Part shown: positions 40,163 through 48,248 of the stretch, piece by piece
Position numbering within the stretch: the stretch's first letter is position 1
How the letters are laid out: every line of letters begins with the position of its first letter
DNA from: Yinghuangia seranimata
GTDB lineage: Bacteria; Actinomycetota; Actinomycetes; Streptomycetales; Streptomycetaceae
NCBI RefSeq assembly: GCF_029953285.1
Contig: NZ_JASAOI010000028.1
Span: 1-64,000 of the forward strand
DNA: 64,000 nt
Reading direction: 5' to 3'
The notes under the pieces: generated by a model
Databases searched by the model: none
What the model was told of the DNA's origin: nothing
Seen by the model: only the letters and a program-made list of their open reading frames with translations
Position numbers and translations under genes: made by a program

Positions 40163-41296
40163 TCAGTCGAGCCGGTCAACAAGGATCATCGCCACGTCGT
40201 CCCCCAAGCGGCCTTGCGTGTGACGAAGCAATGCCTTGTGCAGCTCCTCCAGGAAATCCGGCGGGGTGCAAGCGCTTGCCGCTTCCATGGCCTCGGACAG
40301 GGAAAAGAATTCACTGTCTTGATTGCGGGCTTCGATCACGCCGTCGGTGTACAGCAGCAGTCGGTCGCCGGGCGCGAACGAATAGCTCGCCGCCTTGGCG
40401 GGAGGGCCGGTGACCAGGTCTTCCAGCCCGAGGGGCGGTTCTGTTGAGGTGGGTACCAAAGCCTGCACCCTGCCCTGGTGCAGCATCAGCGGCGCCGGGT
40501 GGCCATGGTTGACCAGCTCCACCACGTGGTCGTCGGGCACCTGAGCCACGATCACGGTGACGAACGATTCCGTCGGGTCCTTCTCGTCGTCCTGACTCGT
40601 CCCCAGCGGCATGGCACGCTCCCGTCGCAGCGCCGCCGCGCAGTGGTCGATGACCTCCAACAGGTCATCCTCATAGTGCACGGCCTCCCGGAAGGCGCTC
40701 AGCACAGCCGCGGCCGAGCGAACCGCGGGCAGCCCCTTGCCCCGTACGTCCCCTACGATCATCCGCACCCCGTACCGCGTCTCCACAGCCTCGTACAGGT
40801 CACCGCCAATCTGCGCGCCGGCCTCTGCCGCGAGGTACATGCTCGCCGTCCGCACCGAACCCAGCCGGTCGGGAACCGGCCGCAGAAGGACGCTTTGCGC
40901 CGCCGCGGAAATTCGGCGTACCTGGTTGAGTTCACTCTGCCTGCGCGAATGCATCGCGCTACTGGTCGCGATACTCGCTGCGGACACCAGGAAAATCGCC
41001 AGGAAATTGGTGTAGACCTGCTGCGTGCCCCACGCCTGGTTGTAGGTGGCAGTAGTCACGCTGACAGCCAGAGCGACAGCCGCTGCCGAAATAGTTCCTT
41101 TAGGCCCCATCGTCACCGCAGCCAGCGCCGGCGTCGCGGTCAGGAGAGGACCGGTGTACAGAAAGTGTGCGGGTGAAAGTTCAATCCCCACCACAAGCAG
41201 CGCGATCGCGAACGGCACACACCGTGCGACCACGAACAGGAGCCGATTGTGACTACCCGCTCCTGATCGTCGAGCCGAACGGAAGAGCGACCGCAT
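40163..41296 (-). CDS. Membrane-anchored PP2C/SpoIIE-type serine phosphatase
   Basis: A 377-aa protein with a membrane region of about four helices (residues 18-115: FAIALLVVGIELSPAHFLYTGPLL, LAAVTMGPKGTISAAAVALAVSVT, NFLAIFLVSAASIATSS), then a SpoIIE-type phosphatase domain: AGAQIGGDLYEAVETRYGVRMIVGDVRGKGLPAVRSAAAVL, HPAPLMLHQGRV, LLLYTDGVIEARN and LGDDVAMILV hold the metal-binding aspartates. Probably a regulator of anti-sigma/anti-anti-sigma signalling at the membrane; no partner gene adjoins. TAAGGC followed by seven bases precedes ATG 41296, so possibly leaderless. Confidence 0.92.
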   Translation of the reverse strand: MRSLFRSARRSGAGSHNRLLFVVARCVPFAIALLVVGIELSPAHFLYTGPLLTATPALAAVTMGPKGTISAAAVALAVSVTTATYNQAWGTQQVYTNFLAIFLVSAASIATSSAMHSRRQSELNQVRRISAAAQSVLLRPVPDRLGSVRTASMYLAAEAGAQIGGDLYEAVETRYGVRMIVGDVRGKGLPAVRSAAAVLSAFREAVHYEDDLLEVIDHCAAALRRERAMPLGTSQDDEKDPTESFVTVIVAQVPDDHVVELVNHGHPAPLMLHQGRVQALVPTSTEPPLGLEDLVTGPPAKAASYSFAPGDRLLLYTDGVIEARNQDSEFFSLSEAMEAASACTPPDFLEELHKALLRHTQGRLGDDVAMILVDRLD

Positions 41297-42138: not shown

Positions 42139-42205
42139 CGACTGGGCTCGAACCAGCATCCGACAGAACTCGCGCTCTGACCTTGGGAATCAGCTACACG
42201 ATCAC
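42139..42205 (-). other. tRNA-3'-half-like remnant
   Basis: On the minus strand the segment contains GGTCAGAGC (D-arm like), and GCTGGTTCGAGCCCAGT, which can fold as a T-arm with a TTCGAGC loop. No matching acceptor 5' strand or anticodon arm can be built, so it is not a functional tRNA. It may be a decayed attachment site or tRNA fragment in the accessory region. Confidence 0.35.
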
Positions 42206-42272
42206 CGCAACAGGGCCCCTGAGCTGCACCAACGCCCCATCCACCCAAGATCGCGTACCCAACCCCTGACCC

Positions 42273-42593
42273 TCATTCACTGTGCCGGATCCCCTCATCT
42301 GGCACGCCTCTGGCACGCTCCTGCTCGGCCCGCATGGCGGCAGCTTTCGCCAGAGCCATCCGCGCAGTGCGGTCACCTCCCGGATAGGCGAAGGCTGTGC
42401 CTTCAAGGGCCTGGTGGAAGGCGAGGTTCGCACGGTCGCACTCTCGTTGCAGCGCGATGCCCTCGGCCATCGTCTCGGCGGCCCAGCCCTGCGTCGGCCC
42501 ATGCGTCCGCACATGCTCGCTCAGCGCCACGGCCGCCCTGCCCGCCGCGAGCTTCAGGCTGATCAGGTGCTCCGGAACATCAACGTCGGTCAT
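42273..42593 (-). CDS. Small hypothetical protein, helical
   Basis: A 106-aa protein with no family recognised: MTDVDVPEHLISLKLAAGRAAVA.., then long amphipathic helices (AETMAEGIALQRECDRANLAFHQALEG, DRTARMALAKAAAMRAEQERARG). AGGAG sits nine bases before ATG 42593. Upstream neighbour on the same strand is the CPCC gene, 40 bp away. Helical composition and size suggest an accessory or regulatory protein of a mobile element. Confidence 0.6.
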   Translation of the reverse strand: MTDVDVPEHLISLKLAAGRAAVALSEHVRTHGPTQGWAAETMAEGIALQRECDRANLAFHQALEGTAFAYPGGDRTARMALAKAAAMRAEQERARGVPDEGIRHSE

Positions 42594-42633
42594 GCTGACA
42601 ACTCCTGCTGGGGCCTGCCCGGTGTGTGGCTGC

Positions 42634-42963
42634 TCAATGCGGTTGCTCGTCCATGAACCGCCTTGCCGCAGCCCACCAACTTCCCACGCCACCACGGCTC
42701 ACCGAGTCCGGGCCCACCCCATCAGCGATGAAGGCCGTGTACTCCTCGCGTGCCTGAGCCAGACTCATCGACCCGTTCGGACCACCCAAGACCTGATCGG
42801 CGTTGGAGTCGTCCTGCCCGTCGTCCTCCCACCCGCACTCCGGGCAGATCTCGAAGCAGGCGAACGACTCCAACGTCACGAGCCGGCAGCAAGGACATCG
42901 ATACGGTCCGCCGTCCATCCGCCGCTGCTGGTACTGCTCAGATCGACGCGGCTGTGAGTCCAT
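42634..42963 (-). CDS. CPCC-family cysteine-rich protein
   Basis: A 109-aa protein with RCPCCRLVTLESFACFEICPECGWEDDGQDD: CPxC and CPEC knuckles form the zinc-ribbon-like CPCC domain (about residues 21-50), followed by LAQAREEYTAFIADGV, typical of the family. Such proteins are often immunity or accessory proteins in polymorphic toxin loci, but no toxin is seen nearby. ATG 42963 follows TAGGGT by seven bases, a leaderless start; ATG 42918 would omit a short N-terminus. Confidence 0.85.
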   Translation of the reverse strand: MDSQPRRSEQYQQRRMDGGPYRCPCCRLVTLESFACFEICPECGWEDDGQDDSNADQVLGGPNGSMSLAQAREEYTAFIADGVGPDSVSRGGVGSWWAAARRFMDEQPH

Positions 42964-42970
42964 GCTCAGG

Positions 42971-42976
42971 ACCCTA
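42971..42976 (-). promoter_or_regulatory. -10 box TAGGGT of the CPCC gene
   Basis: On the minus strand TAGGGT lies exactly seven bases before ATG 42963. Confidence 0.5.
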
Positions 42977-43137
42977 GGACCGAGGGCTCGCCACGACGAA
43001 CGCTTTTGATCCGTAGCTCACGCCGGACCGGACAACCCCGGTCATCCAGGTCTCCGCCGGGCCACACCACACCACCTGTGGCCCATGCCGACCAACACAG
43101 TTGCTGTACTCAGCTGCTGGACGGCAGCTCTCGCCCG

Positions 43138-44771: not shown

Positions 44772-44930
44772 GGCGCCAGGCACCCGCGCCGTCACGGCTC
44801 CGGAGGGACACTGACGCCGTGCGCCATTCCGGCCTCTGACCTGTGGCGGAACGTGGATCAGGGGCCAATTCGGGGGGCGGCGTTTCGCGCTGGTTTCGCG
44901 ATCACGGAGTGAGCGGCTCAGGGGGCAAGG

Positions 44931-45488
44931 TCAATTTCCCGAGCGCACGAGCTCGTGTACGCGTGCGGCCTGGTCTCGGACCTCGTCGTCAGGATCGTGG
45001 GTTCTGATGTCTTGGAGGACCTCGGCAAAGGCGTGCCAGCGGGTTATGGAGACGGCCACGAGCGCGGCACGTCGTAGCAACGGATCCGGGTCGTGCAGAC
45101 CCCAGCGCAAGAGGGCGAAGGCCTCGCGGTCGTAGCCGGACCAAGCGACAACTGCGGTGCGGTACAGAACGTCAATCAGGAGGCCCGGGTCCCGATCCGC
45201 GATCGCCCTCGCCCGCAGTTGCGCGACGTCGTCTGTTGGCATCGCGGTTCGGATGCGTTCGGCCACGGCCTCGGCGTCGGCGCCGAGTACGGCGATGTAG
45301 GTGACGTCGATCAGGTCGTCTTCGACCCACCGGATGACCGTGTTGGCGTCAGACGTCAACCAGATCGCTTCGTTCGGGGCCTGTTCGGCGAGGTAGTCGT
45401 GCCTGTCAAACCCCAAGGCGGCCAGCGTTTCAGCCGCCGCCTCGTAGTCCACCGAGGCTGTGGGAAGGACGCGGATAGGTGTAGTCAC
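44931..45488 (-). CDS. HEAT-repeat-like hypothetical protein
   Basis: A 185-aa protein. An N-terminal alpha/beta part (TTPIRVLPTASVDYEAAAETLAALGFDRHDYL, NEAIWLTSDANTVIRWVEDDLIDVTYIAVLG) is followed by helical repeats LLRRAALVAVSITRWHAFAEVLQDIRTHDPDDEVRDQAARVHELV, HEAT-like. GGAGGAG precedes GTG 45488. The longer frame upstream to 45686 enters the inverted-repeat element and is not used. Reminiscent of immunity proteins; no toxin partner seen. Confidence 0.65.
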   Translation of the reverse strand: MTTPIRVLPTASVDYEAAAETLAALGFDRHDYLAEQAPNEAIWLTSDANTVIRWVEDDLIDVTYIAVLGADAEAVAERIRTAMPTDDVAQLRARAIADRDPGLLIDVLYRTAVVAWSGYDREAFALLRWGLHDPDPLLRRAALVAVSITRWHAFAEVLQDIRTHDPDDEVRDQAARVHELVRSGN

Positions 45489-45596
45489 AGGCTCCTCCAG
45501 CAGCTCGACGACGATCAAGATACCGGCGCCGGAAGGAAGTTGGCGGCCTTGACGGCGTCCTGCGCGTTCCGGATGACCATCCGGCGGAAGGGTGGG

Positions 45597-45761
45597 CCCG
45601 GAGTGTTTGCCGTTCCTTAATCGGCGGGGCGGGAGCATGCACGGGGTCCGTAAGCTGGCCGGCGACGGTCGGGGCGCCTCCCCCACCCGTTTTTCCCACC
45701 GCGGGCCCCCGAGCTTGCTCCCGGTGGCCCCCGCCTATCGAGGAACGGCAAACACTCCGGG
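45597..45761. repeat. MITE-like element bounded by 21-bp perfect inverted repeats
   Basis: The 21-bp ends 45597-45617 and 45741-45761 are perfect inverted copies (core GGAGTGTTTGCCGTTCC), with partial similarity continuing inward (GGCGGG..GGGAGCA) and a 123-bp interior. No target-site duplication is obvious and it encodes nothing recognisable. The interior could fold as a long hairpin. Could be a small non-autonomous mobile element or a large transcription stop. Confidence 0.6.
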
Positions 45762-46344
45762 GTTCGGGGAGGTGACCACGGTTGCTCTTCGCCGTTCGAT
45801 CGGGTGGGGCACCGCCGGGAACGGCATCTTCGCCGCACGCGCGGCGCACCGCAGGTGCGCCGCCTTGATCCAGTAGGGAACAATTCGGCAGTTGATCGTT
45901 CGAAAGGCGATCACGCGTGGGTGAGTGGCACTCAAGCTGCGACCTGGGGCACCCAAGTCGGGGACGTGTGGTGAGTGGCAGGCGTCGTCACGAACCGCTT
46001 AGGGGGATCGGGGGAAGGCCGGAACTTCCACCGGAGCGGCCGGCAGGCCGGTCGGCGCGGTACGCGTCGTCTCGCCGTAACCAGCGGTACGTGAGCCCTC
46101 GGCGCGCTGCGCTAGATCATGGCGGGCATTCGACTGTCGGCGAGGGACGGTTGCGATCCCGTATGCGGCCCCGGCGGCAACCACCGCACTGCTCGCGAAT
46201 GCTGCCGATGAGGCCTCCTGTCAACGGGGTTGGGGGTACCGTTCATGTCATCGAGTCTGTCTTTCGACCGCTCGTGCGACTCCCCAAGCCGAAAAGGTGT
46301 GTGGAGGGTCCGCCTCCACGCAGCTCAATGTGGAGGAGCGCACA
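45762..46344. other. 583-bp region with no recognised gene
   Basis: All six frames were read; none gives a protein I can support. Short G/C hairpins occur (GGCGCACC near 45850), and codon statistics look noncoding. Probably decayed accessory DNA. Confidence 0.5.
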
Positions 46345-46713: not shown

Positions 46714-47163
46714 TCAAAAGCCTGATGGCCTGACCGAGGCGGCAGTGGCATCGTCTTGGGCCTTGCCGCCGGGCCAGCGGGTGCCGGCTGGGTCGGAGTG
46801 TTCGGCGGCGCGGACTTGGGCGATGAGGGCTTCAGGGCCCTTTTGGCGGAGGATCTCCAGCGCGCCTTGCCAGTCGGTGAGTTCGAAGCGGTCGACGGCT
46901 CGGGAAGCTCCGTCCGAGAGGGCGAAGAGGCCGCGGACCTGGTCGATGGGGATGCTGCCGGTGAGGGCTTCGGTGGCGGCGCTCGGGTTGGCGGCGGCGA
47001 CCCAGAAGCCTCCGGGTTGGCTGCGGTGGACGCGCATGGTTTCGACGTGGGCGCGGTGGGCCGCGGAGTGTTCGGCAGTGCCGGCGGGGGTGGAGCCCAT
47101 CGCGCTGCGGTACTTGCTGCCGACTTCGGCTTCGCGGTCGTCGGTGATGACCTGGATGCCATC
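46714..47163 (-). pseudogene. PP2C-like protein, N-terminal half missing
   Basis: The minus frame from 47163 to TGA 46714 reads DGIQVITDDREAEVGSKYRSAM, GGFWVAAANPSAATEALTGS, VRGLFALSDGASRAVDRFEL and DPAGTRWPGGKAQDDATA, the C-terminal half of an actinobacterial PP2C-like family (full members about 260-280 aa; the 11942-12679 gene is a relative). Nothing matching the N-terminal 100 residues exists upstream, where the frame turns to unrelated Arg/His-rich sequence. The break at about 47163 coincides with the edge of the truncated integrase gene. Confidence 0.75.
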
Positions 47164-47174
47164 GGCTCGGCGGT

Positions 47175-47417
47175 GTGGACCTCGTCGAACGTGAACATCG
47201 GCTCGCCCGGCGGGATGCGAAGCATGTCGGCCAGCGCCAGCGGGCCGGCCACAGCGTCGAAGTGATGATGACGCGGTACTCATGGGAGCTCGACGAGCAC
47301 GACGAGAACGCGAACAAGGTCATGGACGACGCGTTCAAGGAGTACGGCACGGACTCCGGGCCCGCCGATGACGACAGGACGGACCAGCCCGACGAGGGCG
47401 GTCAGAGCGACGGGTGA
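47175..47417 (+). pseudogene. Tyrosine recombinase (integrase) 3' fragment
   Basis: From about 47235 the frame reads RAGHSVEVMMTRYSWELDEHDENANKVMDDAF, matching the C-terminal end of actinobacterial tyrosine-recombinase integrases (AGHSVEV.LTRYA), including the catalytic-tyrosine region. Everything upstream that would encode the catalytic Arg-His residues is missing: the frame before 47235 is unrelated. Orientation and position (240 bp from tRNA-Arg) are those of an integrase beside its attachment site. Ends TGA 47417 after an acidic tail. Confidence 0.75.
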
Positions 47418-47473
47418 CAAGCGATCCGGCCCGATCAACGACCCTCACGGCTACGCTGGGGGCTCGTTGGCGT

Positions 47474-47555
47474 TCATACCGCGGGGATACCGGGAAACGG
47501 GGTCTGACCTGCGGAAACGGGCATCAAGATCATACCGAGCCCATACCGGGAACGG
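47474..47555. repeat. Two composite direct repeats beside the tRNA (candidate integrase arm sites)
   Basis: Block 1 (47474-47500) and block 2 (47530-47555) each contain TCATACCG, four or five bases, then ATACCGGGAA(A)CGG, giving two ATACCG half-repeats 11 bp apart in each block and 56 bp between blocks. They lie between the integrase remnant and the tRNA, where arm-type binding sites of tyrosine recombinases would be expected. Confidence 0.65.
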
Positions 47556-47615
47556 TGATTAGCAGCGGCTCAGCGTGGCCTACGGCTGCACATGGTCTGG
47601 ACCCTACAAACAGTA

Positions 47616-47637
47616 ATGGCCCCTGGTGAGGGGCCAT
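47616..47637 (-). terminator. Terminator of the tRNA-Arg transcript
   Basis: Perfect 9-bp stem ATGGCCCCT/AGGGGCCAT with loop of four, 19 bp beyond the tRNA 3' end, followed on the minus strand by TACTGTTT. Confidence 0.75.
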
Positions 47638-47656
47638 ATCCGCTGGTGAATCGAAG

Positions 47657-47728
47657 TGCCCCCGGCAGGATTCGAACCTGCGCACACGGCTCCGGAGGCC
47701 GTTGCTCTATCCCCTGAGCTACGGGGGC
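47657..47728 (-). tRNA. tRNA-Arg (CCG anticodon)
   Basis: A 72-nt cloverleaf: acceptor GCCCCCG/CGGGGGC plus discriminator A, D-arm GCTC..GAGC, anticodon stem ACGGC/GCCGT with loop CTCCGGA (anticodon CCG), T-arm GCAGG TTCGAAT CCTGC. All stems pair perfectly. CCA is not encoded. Reads CGG arginine codons, abundant in this genome. Its 3' end faces the integrase remnant, the usual arrangement when an integrative element uses a tRNA 3' end as attachment site. Confidence 0.97.
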
Positions 47729-47855: not shown

Positions 47856-48248
47856 GTGCGCGGGAGGCCGGGGAGTGGGGCCGGGCGGGTGCTTGTCGTG
47901 GATGACGACGAGGTGATCCGGCGGCTCATCGCGGTCAATTTGCAGTTGGAGGGGTTCGAGGTCACCACGGCGGTGGACGGCGAGGAGTGCCTCGGGCTGG
48001 TGCACGAGGTGCGGCCGCAGTTGGTGACGTTGGACGTGATGATGCCGCGGTTGGACGGGATCAAGACGGCGGCGCGGTTGAAGGCGGATCCGCGGACGAG
48101 TCACCTGAAGATCGTGATGATCAGCGCGTGCGCGCAGAGCCAGGATCTGGCGCGGGCCCGGGAGGCCGGGGTGGACGCGTATCTGACGAAGCCGTTCGAT
48201 CCGGAGATGTTGGTGCGGGTGGTGCGGGGTCTCGCCCCGGGGGATTAG
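47856..48248 (+). CDS. Receiver-only response regulator
   Basis: A 130-aa single-domain CheY-like protein: RVLVVDDDEVIRRLIAVNLQLEGF (acidic Asp pocket), VTLDVMMPRLDGIK with the phosphoacceptor Asp near residue 62, SACAQSQDLAR, and YLTKPFDPEML with the conserved Lys. No output domain. No histidine kinase adjoins, so the partner is elsewhere. GTG 47856 with leaderless geometry; later starts would cut the first strand. Placed between tRNA-Arg and argS as in related genomes (recollection). Confidence 0.9.
   Translation: MRGRPGSGAGRVLVVDDDEVIRRLIAVNLQLEGFEVTTAVDGEECLGLVHEVRPQLVTLDVMMPRLDGIKTAARLKADPRTSHLKIVMISACAQSQDLARAREAGVDAYLTKPFDPEMLVRVVRGLAPGD

What the first reader, a model, noticed from the sequence alone, without database searches (positions are those of the whole stretch)
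47163..47728. Scar of an integrative element at tRNA-Arg(CCG): integrase and PP2C-like genes both lose their 5' ends at one junction
The integrase 3' end (catalytic-tyrosine region, from about 47235) and the 3' half of a PP2C-like gene (up to 47163) face away from each other with only about 70 bp between, both abruptly missing their 5' parts. The integrase remnant points at the 3' end of an intact tRNA-Arg 240 bp away. Actinomycete integrative elements (AICEs) insert at tRNA 3' ends with int beside the att site, so this looks like an element that lost its core by deletion, leaving int stranded. From memory the equivalent tRNA-Arg near argS in S. coelicolor carries an AICE (integrase SCO5349).
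Basis: partly seen in the sequence, partly recalled or inferred. Interest (0 to 1): 0.65.

Follow-up and report, generated by a model that had tools for sequence, protein, structure and literature searches.

The report
Decayed integrative element beside a tRNA
Next to a tRNA-Arg gene, where mobile DNA of this kind repeatedly inserts, lie the leftovers of one such element: two large deletions removed its transfer and replication genes and left stubs of three genes side by side, an ordinary case of mobile-element decay.

Summary
Right of about 47241 is the last ~47 codons of a tyrosine integrase (full length 483 aa in a congener), ending 239 bp from the 3' end of an intact tRNA-Arg(CCG). Left of 47165 is the C-terminal half of a 276-aa PP2C-like gene that is intact in Yinghuangia soli. 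The ~75 bp between them is not filler: 47165-47243 is a 26-codon fragment of a GntR/UTRA regulator gene found in related actinomycete integrative conjugative elements (AICEs). So there are three gene stubs and two junctions. An AICE of Y. soli (G002:C12) has the order PP2C, GntR, Tra, RepSA, Int; the window keeps that order but has lost ~7.9 kb. A decayed left att probably lies at 44793-44806, followed by ~110 bp of element arm also found at decayed att sites in both congeners. The relic is therefore about 44.79-47.70 kb. All three Yinghuangia genomes carry AICEs or relics here. Accretion at tRNA-Arg and AICEs decayed to a partial integrase plus cargo are published (PMC9513070), so this is a new, well-dissected example of a known kind.

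The parts
47656..47728 (-). tRNA-Arg(CCG), intact; its 3' end (47656-47697) is the 42-bp att core
   Evidence: ARAGORN; exact 42-bp copies as direct repeats in congener arrays
47241..47417 (+). 3' stub of a tyrosine integrase gene (about codons 429-483 of the family)
   Evidence: tblastn and blastn to intact 483-aa integrase in L010 and relatives
47418..47655 (+). int-att spacer; carries the motif CTGACCTGCGG at 47504 (possible integrase arm site, inferred)
   Evidence: Aligned with L010, L011, L012, L014
47165..47243 (-). 26-codon internal fragment of a GntR/UTRA regulator gene of AICEs
   Evidence: 85% to L009:8564-8642 (intact 248-aa GntR+UTRA protein), 86% to L016:7753-7835
46738..47165 (-). 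C-terminal half of a PP2C-like gene (residues ~128-269 of 276)
   Evidence: 84% DNA identity to intact gene in G002:C12; PF13672 in the intact homologue
45843..46085 (+). Conserved non-coding block shared by related AICEs
   Evidence: 73-89% identity in 8 other loci of three Yinghuangia genomes
44931..45686 (-). HEAT-repeat protein gene, likely cargo
   Evidence: PF13646; lies between the two ends (inference)
44807..44925 (+). Left arm of the element, adjoining the decayed att; CTGACCTGTGG at 44836
   Evidence: Similar to L011:11062-11200, L010:11138-11251, L015:3849-3980
44793..44806 (+). Probable decayed left att (14 bp CACGGCTCCGGAGG left of the 42-bp core)
   Evidence: Only other copy of this 14-mer in the window is in the tRNA; position supported by the adjoining arm; core alone no better than shuffles

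Best explanation
44.79-47.70 kb is the relic of an actinomycete integrative and conjugative element (AICE, RepSA/FtsK-Tra type) inserted at the 3' end of tRNA-Arg(CCG) by an integrase of the tRNA-Arg(CCG) family. Shown by sequence: the three stubs, their order and orientation, the breakpoints, the att core and the hotspot. Inferred: two deletions with little or no homology at the joints (1 bp at 47165, 3-4 bp at 47241-47244). One fused the PP2C gene to the middle of the GntR gene; the other fused the GntR gene to the integrase 3' end and removed tra, rep, xis and about 428 codons of int. The left att, under no selection, then decayed; the tRNA end stayed intact because the tRNA is needed. The element can no longer excise by its own integrase.
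For: Stubs and their intact relatives. Breakpoints by direct comparison. Same gene order in the intact AICE of G002:C12, with ~7.9 kb missing in the window. 12 of the 13 closest integrases lie beside tRNA-Arg(CCG). Tandem att copies and other relics at the same tRNA in G001 and G002. Left arm and decayed att shared with relics elsewhere.
Against: No intact element with exactly this PP2C, GntR subtype and integrase was found; the GntR of G002:C12 is only 26% identical to the L009 GntR and lies on the other strand. The left att core keeps only 14 bp. No empty site is available in the genus. The genome is a draft, so the joints rest on one assembly.
Confidence: 0.92

Rival explanations
1. Parts of two tandem elements at the same tRNA recombined: the PP2C side comes from one AICE and the GntR and integrase stubs from another, so one joint marks a fusion between elements rather than a deletion within one.
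For: Tandem elements are common at this tRNA; a relic at tRNA-Arg(ACG) in this genome carries the PP2C, block and arm without an integrase; the GntR types differ between elements.
Against: Order and orientation in the window are those of a single AICE; a fusion is not needed to explain them.
Confidence: 0.25
2. Assembly artefact: unrelated pieces were joined in the draft genome.
For: The genome is a draft of 113 contigs and AICE sequences are repeated in it.
Against: The joints lie inside a 190-kb contig; the pieces differ by 11-25% from the other copies in this genome, so they are not misplaced copies of those; element order is preserved.
Confidence: 0.03
3. The chimaeric frames (46714-47283 minus, 47175-47417 plus) are real, expressed small genes.
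For: Both frames are still open.
Against: Their first 20-40 codons read antisense or out-of-frame pieces of other genes. The PP2C stub lacks the N-terminal half of the fold; the integrase stub lacks everything upstream of residue ~429, including the LRH motif.
Confidence: 0.03

Closest known systems
[quoted passage not shown]
   Same: Truncated integrase and cargo left between att repeats after loss of the core by deletion
   Different: There the site is a glycosyltransferase gene in Streptomyces; here it is tRNA-Arg(CCG) in Yinghuangia, with a third (GntR) stub and a mostly decayed left att
Accretion of AICEs at a tRNA-Arg (PMC9513070 Figure 2; tandem Sav3708/Sav3728 in PMC3218068)
   Same: Several elements or remnants in tandem at one tRNA-Arg gene
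   Different: In the window only relics are recognised; the congeners carry the complete-looking elements
CIME (cis-mobilizable element)
   Same: Deletion derivative of an integrative element that keeps att ends and cargo
   Different: A CIME keeps usable att sites; here most of the left att core is lost

Membership tests
AICE (functional) | Integrase gene, complete | tested here: not met
   Only about the last 47-55 codons of 483 remain
AICE (functional) | RepSA/RepAM/Prim-Pol replication gene and FtsK-type Tra gene | tested here: not met
   tblastn of RepSA, Xis and Tra from G001 gives no hit in the window
AICE relic (decayed AICE) | Remnant of an AICE integrase adjoining an att site at a tRNA 3' end | tested here: met
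AICE relic (decayed AICE) | Cargo or backbone pieces in the order of an intact AICE | tested here: met
   Block, PP2C, GntR, Int as in G002:C12
AICE relic (decayed AICE) | Flanking direct repeats (att) | tested here: inconclusive
   Left copy only 14 of 42 bp, supported by the adjoining arm
CIME | Both att sites usable by an integrase of another element | not testable with these tools
   Needs an excision assay; the left att looks damaged

The most novel reading that the evidence does not exclude
The relic still works as a cis-mobilizable element: its tRNA-side att, arm motifs and the conserved hairpin block could be used by an incoming AICE with a tRNA-Arg(CCG) integrase, carrying the HEAT-repeat gene and other cargo along.
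Probability: 0.06. Interest if true: 0.3.

Novelty: new member of a known kind. Interest (0 to 1): 0.13.

Why it matters
It shows at base resolution how an AICE decays at an insertion hotspot, and places an AICE accretion site at tRNA-Arg(CCG)-argS in Yinghuangia. It would help annotators avoid calling the stubs genes. It does not change current understanding.

Tried and rejected
Pfam gave no hit for the two stubs themselves, and none for the intact integrase at 1e-3; the identifications rest on intact relatives. A full-length distal att copy was sought and not found. The best left-att candidate scored no better than shuffles on its own and was accepted only because its adjoining arm matches decayed att sites elsewhere. 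The idea that the ~75 bp between the stubs is random sequence was rejected. Rfam found only the tRNA above its gathering score. An empty-site comparison could not be made: all three Yinghuangia genomes carry islands here, and the left flank (OYE, RidA, MarR) was not found beside this tRNA in the other genera sampled. The hairpin block has no match in the plasmid collection and its covariation support is weak.

Full report
Where it is. The window is G000:C6:1-64000 of a 9.8-Mb draft genome. Its congener G002 is Yinghuangia soli: contig G002:C16 has the length (135067) and the integrase position of NZ_JAKFHA010000023.1. The genus is therefore Yinghuangia. The tRNA-Arg(CCG) at 47656-47728 (minus strand) is followed by a response-regulator gene (47856-48248) and argS (from about 48339). 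The same order occurs in G001, G002 and G005.

What the three stubs are. (a) From 47241 rightwards the DNA matches the 3' end of intact integrases and the spacer to the tRNA: 73% to G001 (L010) and 77% to G002:C57 (L011). The full-length protein in G001 has 483 residues and the window starts at about residue 429. The stub keeps the 'GHS' and the tyrosine of 'TRYSW' but lacks everything upstream, including the 'YDLRH' motif. (b) 47165-47243 is 85% identical to L009:8564-8642 and 86% to L016:7753-7835. The L009 gene is an intact 248-aa protein with GntR and UTRA domains, in an element at this same tRNA in G001. (c) 46739-47165 is 84% identical to the C-terminal half of a 276-aa gene in G002:C12, which matches PF13672 PP2C_2.

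Joints. By direct comparison, the left joint shares 1 bp (47165) and the right joint 3-4 bp (47241-47244, CGG or CGGG). That fits joining with little or no homology; the repair pathway is not shown.

The intact model. In G002:C12 (L013 and L138) the order in window orientation is: conserved block, PP2C, HTH sensor, ATPase, GntR, small gene, FtsK-type Tra, RepSA, Int. The window shows block, PP2C half, GntR piece, Int end: the same order with about 7.9 kb missing. In G001 the element next to the tRNA has Int, Xis, RepSA, Tra and GntR, and the regulator and integrase points that abut in the window are about 5.8 kb apart there. One caveat: the GntR of G002:C12 is only 26% identical to the L009 GntR and lies on the other strand, so the exact parent element was not found.

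Integration site. 12 of the 13 closest integrase relatives found in 84,980 species genomes (L053-L065, 50-56% identity) lie beside tRNA-Arg(CCG) in the same orientation; more distant ones lie beside tRNA-Arg(CCT), Tyr, Ser, Leu and others. The 42-bp tRNA 3' end recurs as direct repeats in the arrays of G001, G002, G005 and G013, and with 3-5 mismatches in G007.

The other end. The 14-mer CACGGCTCCGGAGG of the att core occurs in the window only at 44793-44806 and in the tRNA. As a match to the att core alone it does not beat shuffled sequence. But the ~110 bp that follow match the sequence that follows decayed att sites in G002:C57 and G001, and the equivalent place in a relic at tRNA-Arg(ACG) on contig C31 of this genome. 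The motif CTGACCTGYGG lies just inside both ends (44836 and 47504). I take 44.79-47.70 kb as the relic, and the left end as likely rather than proven.

Hotspot. In G001 the stretch between the MarR-RidA-OYE flank and this tRNA is about 40 kb and holds at least one complete-looking AICE, a large recombinase-like gene (699 aa, not scanned) and a relic with an intact integrase and only the end of RepSA. G002 has a truncated integrase with a decayed att on C57 and an AICE next to the tRNA on C16. In the window the corresponding stretch is about 10.5 kb (37.2-47.66 kb). It also holds 42177-43117, 88-89% identical to part of the AICE at tRNA-Gly on contig C35 of this genome. An intact integrase of the same broad family exists in this genome at tRNA-Tyr (C108), not at this site.

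Comparison with what is known. A Streptomyces population study describes accretion of AICEs at a tRNA-Arg with a conserved remnant lacking traB, and separately AICEs decayed to a partial integrase, cargo and direct repeats (PMC9513070). Tandem AICEs at tRNA-Arg are also in PMC3218068. The present case is a further example in another genus.

Verdict. Observation confirmed with a correction (two joints, three stubs). Interpretation supported. Ordinary, well explained, low novelty.

Noticed in passing
window 45880-46080: Non-coding block with two conserved hairpins (CGGGGGAAG..CTTCCCCCG and GATCGGCC..GGCCGATC), found in 8 other loci of three Yinghuangia genomes; in the elements examined it lies on the cargo side of tra in the same orientation. 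Candidate cis-acting locus (single-strand origin or transfer locus, a guess); not in Rfam, no plasmid match, weak covariation.
   Followed up: partly
window 45600-45758: Perfect 18-bp inverted repeat GGAGTGTTTGCCGTTCCT around 123 bp, the only such pair in the genome at up to 2 mismatches; the stretch is 79% similar to G002:C16:1246-1397.
   Followed up: partly
window 42177-43117: 88-89% identical to part of an AICE at tRNA-Gly on contig C35 of the same genome; suggests a second relic left of the one described.
   Followed up: partly
L015 3849-6885 (G000:C31): Another relic in this genome at tRNA-Arg(ACG): truncated HTH-sensor gene, degraded PP2C gene, the block and the arm, with no integrase.
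   Followed up: partly
L010 8797-11285 (G001): Relic with an intact 483-aa integrase and Xis but only the C-terminal end of RepSA, between two decayed att sites.
   Followed up: partly
window 40163-41296: SpoIIE-type phosphatase gene (PF07228) inside the accessory stretch; not clear whether it belongs to an element.
   Followed up: no
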